A DNA stretch of 64,000 bases from Flavivirga aquimarina (lineage in GTDB: Bacteria > Bacteroidota > Bacteroidia > Flavobacteriales > Flavobacteriaceae): NCBI RefSeq assembly GCF_030540835.1, contig NZ_JAUOEK010000069.1, forward strand, positions 62,001-126,000. Reading direction: 5' to 3'. Numbering within the stretch: position 1 is the stretch's first letter; each line of letters opens with the position of its first letter. Below are positions 25,583 through 27,091 of the stretch, in pieces. The notes below the pieces were generated by a model. The model did no database searches, was not told the origin of the DNA, and was given only the letters and a program-made list of their open reading frames with translations. Made by a program: the position numbers and the translations under genes.

Positions 25583-25593
25583 TCAAGAAAATA

Positions 25594-25793
25594 ACCACCT
25601 CGTCTTCTATTTCAAGGTGTTGAAATAGAATCCACTCCTCCTTTAAAAGGAGGAGAGTTAAAAAAGCAGATTATAATTAACTATTGAACTACAAATTCAA
25701 AATTAAGTTAGAAACAAAAACTCCTTCCCTTGTGAGGAAGGTGGCTTTAATTTCAATAAAAGAAATCAAAGACGGAAGGGTTGAACTATAAGT
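25594..25793 (+). repeat. Hairpin-rich leader, copy 1 of the DUF559 unit
   Basis: A 200-bp non-coding block that recurs, nearly identical, at 26157-26358 and 26722-26923. It contains four hairpins: (C)ATTTCAA-type, CTCCTCCTTT/AAAGGAGGAG, CCTTCC(C)/GGAAGG and CTTTAATTTC/GAAATCAAAG. This copy differs by a few substitutions, including one that breaks one pair in the last stem. Confidence 0.85.
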
Positions 25794-26156
25794 ATGGATA
25801 AGAAAATACACAACCATAAATATCTTGAACAACGCAGAAAAGAACTGCGAAAAAATTTAACATCCGCAGAAGCAACATTATGGGCACTTTTACAGAAGAA
25901 GCAACTCAAAGGAAGAAAGTTTAGAAGACAACATAGCATTGAAAATTATATTGTGGATTTTTATTGTGCATCAGAAAAACTGATTATAGAATTAGATGGA
26001 GCCTATCATCTTGATTTTGCTCAGCAAAATTATGATTATGAAAGGACAAGAATTTTAAACGACCTTGGGTTTAAAGTACTTAGATTCGAGAACAAATTGA
26101 TTTTTGAAAATAGTGCTGATGTATTGGAGGAAATAAGCAGTCATTTTAAATATTAG
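25794..26156 (+). CDS. DUF559 endonuclease-domain protein, copy 1
   Basis: A 120-residue DUF559 protein of the PDDEXK/Vsr-like superfamily. Candidate catalytic residues are E26 (T-S-A-E), D55 (Y-I-V-D-F-Y-C) and E66-x-D68-G (IIELDG), with H72 nearby. It is complete and lacks a helicase or methylase neighbour. It forms the coding part of a 565-bp tandem unit. Copy 2 differs at only two residues (31 and 108). Typical roles of DUF559 proteins are unknown; nuclease activity is inferred from the fold. Confidence 0.88.
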   Translation: MDKKIHNHKYLEQRRKELRKNLTSAEATLWALLQKKQLKGRKFRRQHSIENYIVDFYCASEKLIIELDGAYHLDFAQQNYDYERTRILNDLGFKVLRFENKLIFENSADVLEEISSHFKY

Positions 26157-26358
26157 AACCACCTCGTCTCTCATTTCAAGGTATTGAAATGAAATCCACT
26201 CCTCCTTTAAAAGGAGGAGAGTTAAAAAAGTATATTACAATTAACTATTGAACTACAAATTTAAAATTAAGTTAGAAGCAAAAACTCCTTCCCTTGTGAG
26301 GGAAGGTGGCTTTGATTTCAATAAAAGAAATCAAGGACGGAAGGGTTGAACTATAAGT
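26157..26358 (+). repeat. Hairpin-rich leader, copy 2 of the DUF559 unit
   Basis: Stems: CATTTCAA/TTGAAATG (26172-26191, 4-base loop), CTCCTCCTTT/AAAGGAGGAG (26199-26219), CCTTCCC/GGGAAGG (26287-26306) and TTGATTTC/GAAATCAA (26312-26334). The 5' CCTTCCC could also pair with the later GGAAGGG at 26339-26345, giving an alternative fold. Confidence 0.85.
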
Positions 26359-26721
26359 ATGGATAAGAAAATACACAACCATAAATATCTTGAACAACGT
26401 AGAAAAGAACTGCGAAAAAATTTAACATCCGCAGAAGCAACATTATGGACACTTTTACAGAAGAAGCAACTTAAAGGAAGAAAGTTTAGAAGACAACATA
26501 GTATTGAAAACTATATTGTGGATTTTTATTGTGCATCAGAAAAACTGATTATAGAATTAGATGGAGCCTATCATCTTGATTTTGCTCAGCAAAATTATGA
26601 CTATGAAAGGACAAGAATTTTAAACGACCTTGGGTTTAAAGTACTTAGATTCGAGAACAAATTGATTTTTGAAAATAGTGTTGATGTATTGGAGGAAATA
26701 AGCAGTCATTTTAAATATTAG
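26359..26721 (+). CDS. DUF559 endonuclease-domain protein, copy 2
   Basis: Same 120-residue protein as copy 1 with A31T and A108V. The catalytic candidates E26, D55, E66 and D68 are all kept and the start codons are exactly 565 bp apart. Most DNA differences between the copies are silent (for example CTCAAA/CTTAAA), which suggests the protein sequence has been under selection since duplication. Confidence 0.88.
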   Translation: MDKKIHNHKYLEQRRKELRKNLTSAEATLWTLLQKKQLKGRKFRRQHSIENYIVDFYCASEKLIIELDGAYHLDFAQQNYDYERTRILNDLGFKVLRFENKLIFENSVDVLEEISSHFKY

Positions 26722-26923
26722 AACCACCTCGTCTCTCATTTCAAGGTATTGAAATGAAATCCACTCCTCCTTTAAAAGGAGGAGAGTTAAAAAAGTAGAT
26801 TACAATTAACTATTGAACTACAAATTTAAAATTAAGCTAGAAGCAAAAAATCCTTCCCTTGTGAGGGAAGATGGCTTTGATTTCTATAAAAGAAATCAAA
26901 GACGGAAGGGTTAAACTATAATT
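26722..26923 (+). repeat. Hairpin-rich leader, copy 3 of the DUF559 unit
   Basis: Third copy of the block, with intact stems including a perfect CTTTGATTTC/GAAATCAAAG. It ends at an ATG that starts only a remnant of the nuclease gene. Confidence 0.85.
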
Positions 26924-26959
26924 ATGGACAAGAACGTAATAATAAATACTTTGAAATGA
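26924..26959 (+). pseudogene. Truncated third copy of the DUF559 gene
   Basis: The ATG at 26924 is exactly 565 bp after the start of copy 2. It reads MDKNVIINTLK and stops, against MDKKIHNHKYLEQ in the intact copies. Homology is lost after about 36 bp. Beyond it, 26960-27060 holds a fragment of the CAGTCGAA element and AT-rich DNA without a gene. Confidence 0.75.
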
Positions 26960-27071
26960 GCCTCATTCCTCTGGTTGCTGTGGAGTCGAAATGAAGACTG
27001 GAATCTCATGATTGAGAAATACAAATATTAATATTGTATCAATAAATATGATACATATCAAAAACTATAAG

Positions 27072-27091
27072 ATTCCTGCCTTCGCAGGAAT
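27072..27091. repeat. Dispersed hairpin ATTCCTGC-cttc-GCAGGAAT
   Basis: Same hairpin as at 10320-10339. It lies 3 bp past the stop of the minus-strand T9SS protein gene, so it may act as its terminator. Confidence 0.7.

What the first reader, a model, noticed from the sequence alone, without database searches (positions are those of the whole stretch)
25594..26959. Tandem 565-bp unit of a DUF559 nuclease and four hairpins, two full copies plus a remnant
Seen: three hairpin-rich blocks of about 200 bp and start codons at 25794, 26359 and 26924, each exactly 565 bp apart. Two nuclease copies differ by two residues and keep all candidate catalytic residues; the third is cut after 36 bp. Known: DUF559 belongs to the PDDEXK/Vsr-like nuclease fold. 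Inference: a small nuclease with its own palindromic DNA resembles the REP/RAYT partnership but with a different enzyme, so this may be a nuclease-linked element that spreads or amplifies its hairpins.
Basis: partly seen in the sequence, partly recalled or inferred. Interest (0 to 1): 0.8.

Follow-up and report, generated by a model that had tools for sequence, protein, structure and literature searches.

The report
Nuclease gene flanked by triplex-forming repeats
A small DNA-cutting enzyme gene found across bacteria travels with a widespread class of DNA repeats that can fold into a triple helix, and together they look like a new kind of mobile element that can even sit inside essential genes.

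Summary
In detail: two 565-bp units, each a ~202-bp four-hairpin block plus a 120-aa DUF559 (PF04480) nuclease gene, then a third block with a 36-bp gene stub. It is not a local oddity. Related solo blocks are dispersed in the genome. DUF559 genes in at least six phyla sit beside hairpin repeats of one design: a C-rich tag that mirrors the hairpin arm. This is the design of the known BoxC/PIT/"TM" intrastrand-triplex repeats, reported to have no mobility gene nearby. A strict detector finds it beside 48 of 80 named DUF559 loci, against 14 of 811 windows upstream of other genes; tags covary with arms across 34 arm sequences. In 99 Enterobacterales genomes TM repeats (two patterns) occur in 8 of 11 with DUF559 and 3 of 88 without. 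The element also lies in frame inside recG, leuS, metH, priA and hydF; one recG site shows empty, full, nuclease-less and remnant forms within one genus. Best reading: a nuclease-plus-triplex-repeat mobile element that works like REP/RAYT but shares neither its enzyme nor its tag. Association is shown; that the nuclease drives movement is inferred (about 0.65).

The parts
25593..25655 (+). Copy 1, left module: tag AACCACCTC (25593-25601), GTC, inner hairpin (25605-25630), TCCA, outer hairpin CTCCTCCTTTAAAAGGAGGAG (25635-25655)
   Evidence: tag mirrors outer arm 9/9 when A may stand for T (6/9 strictly); 1 of 386 nine-mers of the block, both strands, scores as high, the tag itself
25720..25782 (-). 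Copy 1, right module (inverted): outer hairpin CCTTCC..GGAAGG, inner hairpin, tag AACCCTTCC on the minus strand
   Evidence: mirror 7 of 9
25794..26156 (+). DUF559 (PF04480) nuclease gene, copy 1, 120 aa
   Evidence: PF04480 E 1.1e-37; profiles of relatives match PDB 3hrl and, weakly, 3r3p
26157..26219 (+). Copy 2, left module; its tag directly abuts the TAG stop of nuclease copy 1
26285..26347 (-). Copy 2, right module (inverted)
   Evidence: mirror 8 of 9 with A for T
26359..26721 (+). DUF559 nuclease gene, copy 2 (A31T and A108V relative to copy 1)
26722..26923 (+). Third four-hairpin block (two inverted modules; the right outer hairpin has changed bases and was not scored)
26924..27083 (+). 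36-bp nuclease stub and tail; with block 3 forms a dispersed ~310-bp nuclease-less derivative, second copy at G000:C104 (L010 1337-1629)

Best explanation
The unit is one family of a widespread mobile element made of a DUF559 (PD-(D/E)XK, Vsr-like) nuclease gene and terminal repeats. Each repeat is a tag plus a hairpin; the tag is the mirror image of the pyrimidine arm, so the G-rich strand can fold into hairpin plus third strand (purine-motif intrastrand triplex). Two modules in inverted orientation form an end block; in the window family an extra covarying stem-loop sits between tag and hairpin. SHOWN: anatomy, mirror covariation, association with DUF559 across phyla, dispersed solo and nuclease-less copies, co-occurrence of nuclease and repeats, in-frame occupied, empty and remnant forms of one site, purifying selection on the nuclease. 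INFERRED: when the strand is single (replication, transcription) the nuclease recognises its cognate folded end and cuts there or at a target; host repair or recombination, helped by the repeats, copies the element into the break, making full units, nuclease-less pairs, solo ends and tandem arrays. The window's 565-bp tandem most simply arose by unequal recombination between its end blocks.
For: Tag+hairpin (stem>=7, mirror>=7/8) beside 48 of 80 named DUF559 loci (upstream 39, downstream 24; two windows a locus) versus 17 of 1444 random windows of the same contigs and 14 of 811 windows upstream of other ORFs; upstream 39/80 vs 14/811, p 5e-34. Mirror covariation over 34 arm sequences: own score 6.44, permuted 5.53, 0 of 5000; direct-repeat control z=1.0; among those scoring 6 or more, arm C to tag C 112/119, arm T to tag T or A 45/49. 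Enterobacterales: canonical TM in 5 of 11 DUF559+ (7-230 copies) and 3 of 88 DUF559- (1-7); a variant read beside two of the DUF559 genes gives 14, 5, 4 copies in three further DUF559+ genomes and 3 in one DUF559-; together 8/11 vs 3/88, p 1.5e-7. recG site in one genus: 3 empty, 4 full, 1 with both ends but no nuclease, 4 left-end remnants. Solo block in G008 where four relatives have DUF559 between blocks. Dispersed derivative. Median dN/dS 0.07-0.15 in six DUF559 groups. DUF559 profiles find a mobile-intron endonuclease, 3r3p, E 2e-5 and 2e-4.
Against: No movement was observed and no target-site duplication found. Family-A blocks also occur in genus-mates whose DUF559 belongs to other families (G005, 10 hits) and in G008 with none; 3 of 88 DUF559-lacking Enterobacterales carry TM repeats. 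3 of 11 DUF559+ genomes show neither TM type searched, though one of them (G175) has another tag-hairpin variant beside its gene; the DUF559 of G165 is broken by stops. 9 of 26 DUF559 genomes lack the exact TM pattern. 32 of 80 named loci fail the strict detector, as does the E. coli ycjD locus L216; only 15 of 56 flavobacterial loci pass. A PD-(D/E)XK nuclease has no joining activity. The recG tree is poorly resolved and does not show repeated gain. Counts are not corrected for phylogeny.
Confidence: 0.65

Rival explanations
1. DUF559 is a host housekeeping nuclease that processes triplex or hairpin DNA; the repeats are its substrates or regulators and spread by other means. The gene sits next to repeats because it is regulated by them.
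For: Strong purifying selection. Caulobacter VsrA (DUF559) is described as DNA-damage induced and responsible for the SOS response of cells lacking methyltransferase ScmA (PMC12907096, passages).
Against: Patchy distribution: 11 of 99 Enterobacterales, 23 of 60 family genomes, 10 of 12 in the genus. Several different DUF559 copies in one genome, each with its own repeat variant (G151). In-frame insertions in unrelated genes and presence/absence at one recG site fit a selfish element better.
Confidence: 0.15
2. The repeats are moved by another enzyme (a RAYT/IS200-type HUH transposase) and DUF559 genes are passengers caught between two repeats.
For: Tag+hairpin ends and inverted pairs resemble REP ends. 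RAYT content of these genomes was not tested here.
Against: The repeats lack the GTAG tag of RAYT-linked REPs; repeats were seen with the same gene family across phyla, unexpected of random passengers; Holder et al. report no transposase or integrase near E. coli TM sites (PMC4666352, sections read).
Confidence: 0.1
3. DUF559 is an ordinary free-standing homing endonuclease that cuts fixed target sites; the repeats are only tolerated boundary DNA that eases in-frame read-through.
For: Profile similarity to mobile-intron endonuclease 3r3p; the same host genes recur in different genomes (recG, leuS, a class I tRNA synthetase read as ileS, metH); a decaying nuclease remains in one leuS (L091, E 1.7e-11 against 1.4e-35 for L004).
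Against: Homing does not predict mirror covariation of the ends, high-copy solo ends or variant-matched repeats. The leuS loop also holds unrelated palindromic inserts, so a shared site may only be a permissive one.
Confidence: 0.1

Closest known systems
BoxC / PIT / TM(ECO) intrastrand triplex motifs (Holder et al. 2015, PMC4666352: abstract, sections 12, 15, 16, 18, first part of 20 and passages read)
   Same: Repeats beside many proteobacterial DUF559 genes match their pattern; inverted pairs; mirror third block. Their TMECO no. 9 (MG1655 1351204-1351239) lies between ycjD, E. coli's DUF559 gene, and fabI.
   Different: They report no associated mobility gene; here DUF559 is the associated gene. 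The window family has an extra stem-loop between tag and hairpin and does not have their exact pattern.
REP/REPIN repeats with RAYT transposases (features partly recalled, partly from PMC3733652)
   Same: Small dispersed tag+hairpin repeats, inverted pairs, an enzyme gene flanked by its repeats, solo copies, intragenic copies.
   Different: PD-(D/E)XK-type nuclease instead of a HUH tyrosine transposase; C-rich mirror tag instead of GTAG.
CGTC-tagged REPs (Di Nocera 2013, PMC3733652: abstract, passages, sections 6 and 15 read)
   Same: The inner hairpin of the window family has CGTC before the stem and TCCA after; Bacteroidetes included; [quoted passage not shown]
   Different: 11-bp stem rather than 8-9; the CGTC tag is not a feature of the other DUF559-linked families seen here.
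Homing endonucleases of the Vsr-like (EDxHD, name recalled) type, e.g. the mobile intron protein 3r3p
   Same: Weak but significant profile similarity; occupancy of conserved genes.
   Different: No intein domain found; element is translated in frame; repeats at both ends. Intron structure was not searched for.
Caulobacter VsrA (DUF559; PMC12907096, passages)
   Same: Same domain; genetically linked to DNA damage.
   Different: The authors propose very-short-patch mismatch repair; the word stem 'palindrom' does not occur in the text.

Membership tests
BoxC/PIT/TM intrastrand triplex motif | Pattern CCCTCNCCC N3-6 GGGNGAGGG N3 GGGNGAGGG | tested here: met
   For DUF559 genomes of the named set: 17 of 26 searched (26 of 80 loci were given), up to 230 copies, reversed control 0. 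The window block does not have this exact form.
BoxC/PIT/TM intrastrand triplex motif | Third block mirrors the hairpin arm | tested here: met
   34 arm sequences, 0 of 5000 permutations; window left tag 9/9 in all three copies, right 7/9 and 8/9 in copies 1 and 2, with A allowed for T
BoxC/PIT/TM intrastrand triplex motif | Forms a triplex physically | not testable with these tools
   shown in vitro by Holder et al. for TMECO; not for the window family
REP/RAYT | Enzyme is a HUH (Y1) tyrosine transposase | tested here: not met
   Pfam finds only DUF559 and MTES_1575 in the window proteins
REP/RAYT | GTAG tetranucleotide tag | tested here: not met
   tags are C-rich (read) and mirror the arm
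REP/RAYT | Dispersed repeats in inverted pairs flanking the enzyme gene | tested here: met
CGTC REP | CGTC tag, 8-9 bp stem, CCA tail | tested here: inconclusive
   inner hairpin of the window family only: CGTC, 11 bp, TCCA
Homing endonuclease element | Occupied and empty alleles of a conserved site | tested here: met
   recG 4 full and 3 empty of 12
Homing endonuclease element | Intein (Hint) domain | tested here: not met
   none listed among Pfam matches at E<=1e-5 or 1e-6 in 24 proteins scanned
Homing endonuclease element | Cleaves the empty allele | not testable with these tools
   needs enzyme assay
IS/MITE | Target-site duplication | tested here: inconclusive
   recG and leuS junctions read by eye, no clear duplication; the loops are too variable

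The most novel reading that the evidence does not exclude
DUF559 nucleases are the dedicated mobility enzymes of bacterial intrastrand-triplex repeats (BoxC/PIT/TM and relatives). They form a cross-phylum class of mobile element whose nuclease recognises a cognate triple-stranded fold in single-stranded DNA, and which can persist in frame inside essential genes without splicing.
Probability: 0.5. Interest if true: 0.93.

Novelty: categorically new. Interest (0 to 1): 0.87.

Why it matters
Intrastrand-triplex repeats are widespread in bacteria (Holder et al.: 3610 TMECO copies in 262 proteobacterial genomes) and, in the papers seen here, have no known enzyme. A cognate nuclease turns 'why are these repeats there' into a bench question answerable in E. 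coli K-12, which carries both ycjD and TM repeats. It would give a function to a large family of unknown function, suggest an enzyme that reads triple-stranded DNA, and explain how nuclease domains come to sit inside RecG, LeuRS, MetH, PriA and HydF. The parts (repeat, domain) are each known; the pairing and the element are what is new, as REP and RAYT were before they were joined.

Tried and rejected
Membership in CGTC REPs: attractive because those lack an enzyme, but the CGTC tag was seen only in the window family's inner hairpin; kept as a resemblance. Covariance-model search: not done; BLAST and pattern searches answered dispersal. Within-E. coli TM counts with and without ycjD: complete E. 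coli genomes could not be pattern-searched (87); replaced by the Enterobacterales species sample. Literature gives only a hint: phylogroups A, B1 and C carry ycjD where others, including B2 types, carry eefRABCD (PMC12817139, passages), and TM number runs from 29 in strain 55989 to 1 in IHE3034 (PMC4666352); the phylogroups of those two strains are recalled. Repeated gain at recG: the tree (114) is too weak. My first naming of the L072 host from sequence memory was wrong; Pfam gives histidinol dehydrogenase (133). Rfam: one match at E 0.099, far below its gathering score (121). PADLOC: only weak hits, best E 1.2e-4 (119).

Literature for 'not in print': searches, 123 of an open-access library; 'DUF559' alone gave 14 papers. 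From the listings and the passages read, none links DUF559 to these repeats; of that list only PMC12907096 was opened (passages), the others were seen as titles and abstract openings. PMC11855218 was seen as outline and abstract, PMC2869309, PMC12817139 and PMC1189080 as passages. Subscription papers and preprints were not searchable, so prior publication cannot be excluded.

Full report
OBSERVATION. The window carries two complete 565-bp units and a third block, as described. Blocks start at 25593, 26157 and 26722; ATGs at 25794, 26359 and 26924. The two DUF559 genes differ at 7 of 363 nt, 5 of them silent, and are PF04480 at E about 1e-37. Most of the third block with its 36-bp stub and tail is a dispersed ~310-bp derivative, with a second copy at contig C104 (92.5% over 267 bp plus a 33-bp piece).

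ANATOMY. Each block is two modules in inverted orientation. The left module reads tag AACCACCTC, GTC, inner hairpin, TCCA, outer hairpin CTCCTCCTTTAAAAGGAGGAG. In 14 left modules from this genome and genus-mates (13 distinct), 8 of 11 inner-hairpin pairs changed on both sides; the covariation score exceeds all 500 shuffles and all slid controls, while the number of further pair types is reached by 48 of 500 shuffles. The left tag is the mirror image of the outer arm: 9 of 9 if A may stand for T (6 of 9 strictly), which 1 of 386 nine-mers of the block, the tag itself, achieves; the right tag scores 7 of 9 in copy 1 and 8 of 9 in copy 2; the right module of copy 3 was not scored (script error). 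A mirror rather than direct repeat is the geometry of an intrastrand triplex, and A-or-T over an A-T pair fits an antiparallel purine motif on the G-rich strand (chemistry recalled).

DISPERSAL. In the window's genome the block finds nine matches at E<1e-3 outside the three window copies, some of them short, including three tandem partial or whole copies on C156 with a ~270-bp period; I saw no DUF559 there and PF04480 has no match on C156. In the genus, 10 of 12 genomes have block matches. In G008, which has no DUF559 match, one complete solo block lies upstream of pbpC where G001, G003, G007 and G011 have DUF559 between two block matches. G005 has 10 hits though its DUF559 genes belong to other families, so the pairing of block and enzyme family is not exclusive.

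DUF559 AND REPEATS ELSEWHERE. PF04480 occurs in 10 of 12 genus genomes and 23 of 60 family genomes. In the flanks I read (whose output was cut in the middle) the genes were flanked by hairpin repeats of several families. By record title these are mostly Proteobacteria, with Nitrospirota, Chloroflexota, Gastranaerophilales, Deltaproteobacteria, Binatia, Spirochaetota and Bacteroidota. A perfect stem of 8 bp or more lies within 250 nt upstream in 58 of 79 and downstream in 29 of 78, against 80 of 1119 random windows. A strict tag-hairpin detector fires on 48 of 80 (upstream 39, downstream 24), against 17 of 1444 random windows and 14 of 811 windows upstream of other ORFs; each control is one 300-nt window, each locus has two. 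By title the 48 fall in six phylum-level groups (Proteobacteria, Desulfobacterota-type, Nitrospirota, Chloroflexota, Cyanobacteriota, Spirochaetota; my assignment). It fires on 15 of 56 flavobacterial loci (three rows of 59, a duplicate and two fragments, left out), 5 of 8 plasmid or chromid loci, and 11 of 14 Enterobacterales or E. coli loci (the broken G165 copy not included; the E. coli ycjD locus L216 itself fails). The low flavobacterial figure reflects, at least in part, long-linker families and imperfect stems in coding insertions.

TRIPLE COVARIATION. Of 363 pyrimidine-arm hairpins beside DUF559 genes, 131 have a C-rich 5' side and were used; they have 34 distinct arms, one representative each. 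Tags mirror their own arm better than tags dealt from other loci (6.44 against 5.53, 0 of 5000 permutations); the strict mirror has z=5.4, a direct repeat z=1.0. Among representatives scoring 6 or more, at the best linker length, arm C meets tag C in 112 of 119 cases, arm T meets T (29) or A (16) in 45 of 49. G151 has four DUF559 genes whose flanking tags and arms differ in step.

LINK TO KNOWN REPEATS. The proteobacterial form is the BoxC/PIT/TM motif of Holder et al. 2015 (PMC4666352), who give the pattern, 3610 copies in 262 proteobacterial genomes, types A and B in inverted pairs and triplex formation in vitro, and state that they never found mobility functions nearby. 'DUF' and words beginning 'nuclease' or 'endonuclease' do not occur in its main text. 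Their E. coli TM no. 9 lies between ycjD and fabI, confirmed in strain PS200 at 1351205-1351239. ycjD is E. coli's DUF559 gene; its region has a match in 3365 of 5426 complete genomes. With one in 23 copies beside the gene, the link is easily missed from the repeat side.

CO-OCCURRENCE. Of 26 DUF559 genomes (chosen from the 80 named loci), 17 have the exact pattern, up to 230 copies, with no match to the reversed control; 9 have none. In 99 Enterobacterales genomes, DUF559 is in 11, one of them (G165) broken by stops. The pattern is in 5 of those (230, 36, 32, 14, 7) and in 3 of 88 others (7, 3, 1). A variant read beside the G103 and G182 genes is in G103 (14), G165 (5), G182 (4) and, without DUF559, G127 (3), and in none of the other 95, at up to one mismatch. 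Together 8 of 11 against 3 of 88, p=1.5e-7. The variant was chosen from two of these genomes; some copies flank the gene itself, others are distant. No phylogenetic correction was made.

IN-FRAME INSERTIONS. In 22 of 59 flavobacterial DUF559 rows the domain lies in a frame longer than 200 aa. Of these, 8 were scanned with Pfam: the domain lies inside RecG, leucyl-tRNA synthetase (two), another class I tRNA synthetase that I read as isoleucyl, and MetH (two), at the C-terminus of histidinol dehydrogenase and at the N-terminus of HemD. In the named set 21 frames exceed 230 aa and 16 were scanned: it lies inside PriA (L147) and HydF (L207, L213), with type I specificity domains (L142, L144, L171, L202), an N6/N4 methylase (L149), GHMP kinase (L146, L165), DUF1156 (L204) and a radical-SAM protein (L212); four frames (L153, L158, L178, L193) showed no further family beyond DUF559/MTES_1575. 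No intein domain was listed.

ALLELE SERIES. The recG site in 12 genus genomes: empty (SKLWKKN[TM]SPPHILV) in G002, G005 and G010; full tag-hairpin, DUF559, hairpin-tag in G000, G004, G007 and G009; both ends without nuclease in G011; left end only in G001, G003, G006 and G008 (the last judged on protein only). A recG tree is poorly resolved, with full alleles in separate places. In leuS 58 of 60 family genomes gave the gene; of 30 loci read, one of them out of frame, 3 carry DUF559 (G000, G046, G033), the others a loop without it, mostly 15-23 residues by that script's measure, and some have other palindromic inserts in the same loop. So this loop is permissive, which warns against reading a shared site as proof of homing.

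ENZYME. DUF559 groups free-standing and embedded in recG, leuS and ileS show median dN/dS 0.07-0.15; dS is partly saturated (undefined in 7 leuS pairs), and for embedded copies the host fold may contribute. Profiles of the family match PDB 3hrl ('Endonuclease-Like Protein', E 2e-38 and 9e-39) and 3r3p (mobile intron protein, E 2e-5 and 2e-4). A 2005 study reports the YcjD profile detecting Vsr at 1e-5 (PMC1189080, passages). Caulobacter VsrA, a DUF559 protein, is held responsible for the SOS response when a methyltransferase is missing (PMC12907096, passages), the only in vivo activity I found for the family.

MECHANISM. The best account is a mobile element whose nuclease recognises its cognate tag-hairpin ends. 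Shown: association, covariation, dispersal, co-occurrence, allele forms, selection. Inferred: recognition of the folded strand, cutting, and copying by host repair. Rivals (host triplex-processing nuclease; passenger of another transposase; plain homing endonuclease) remain open at lower odds. RAYT content was not tested.

VERDICT. It works like REP/RAYT but fails two defining features of it (HUH enzyme, GTAG tag), and no element class I compared it with has this make-up. Prior publication outside the open library cannot be excluded.

Noticed in passing
leuS of G038 (L100), G039 (L101), G055 (L123), G010 (L105): The LeuRS loop that holds DUF559 in other species carries other palindromic inserts here (GTCATTGCGAG..., GTCATTCCGAG..., ATGCTGAAAC...; a palindrome in G010), the first three resembling CGTC REPs: a permissive landing loop.
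   Followed up: partly
G000:C156:14013-14749 (L009) and G005:C29:197527-198347: Solo family-A blocks or half blocks in tandem arrays, about 270 bp and 210 bp apart; no DUF559 seen on C156, the G005 array was not read.
   Followed up: no
L142, L144, L171, L202 (Nitrospira and Binatia MAGs): DUF559 lies in one frame with type I restriction specificity (Methylase_S) domains, two of them also with a nucleotidyltransferase domain; a hairpin ACTCCCCC...GGGGGAGT precedes it.
   Followed up: partly
L165 3831-5561: Two DUF559 stretches in one frame with a GHMP kinase N-domain in a Gastranaerophilales MAG.
   Followed up: no
L091 535-3282 (leuS of G013): A degenerate DUF559 (E 1.7e-11) still in frame inside LeuRS: a possible dying insert.
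   Followed up: partly
window 27067-27091 and L017 2073-2097: A 25-bp perfect repeat from the stretch of the window palindrome GATTCCTGCcttcGCAGGAAT, which resembles a CGTC/dRS3-type element, shared with another place of the same contig.
   Followed up: no
E. coli sapF-fabI region: Strains without ycjD have efflux-pump genes next to sapF instead (6 strains read; eefRABCD in PMC12817139, passages).
   Followed up: partly
plasmids NZ_CP119142.1 and NZ_CP141089.1: Records labelled plasmid are chromosome-sized (2.17 and 4.94 Mb), probably mislabelled.
   Followed up: no
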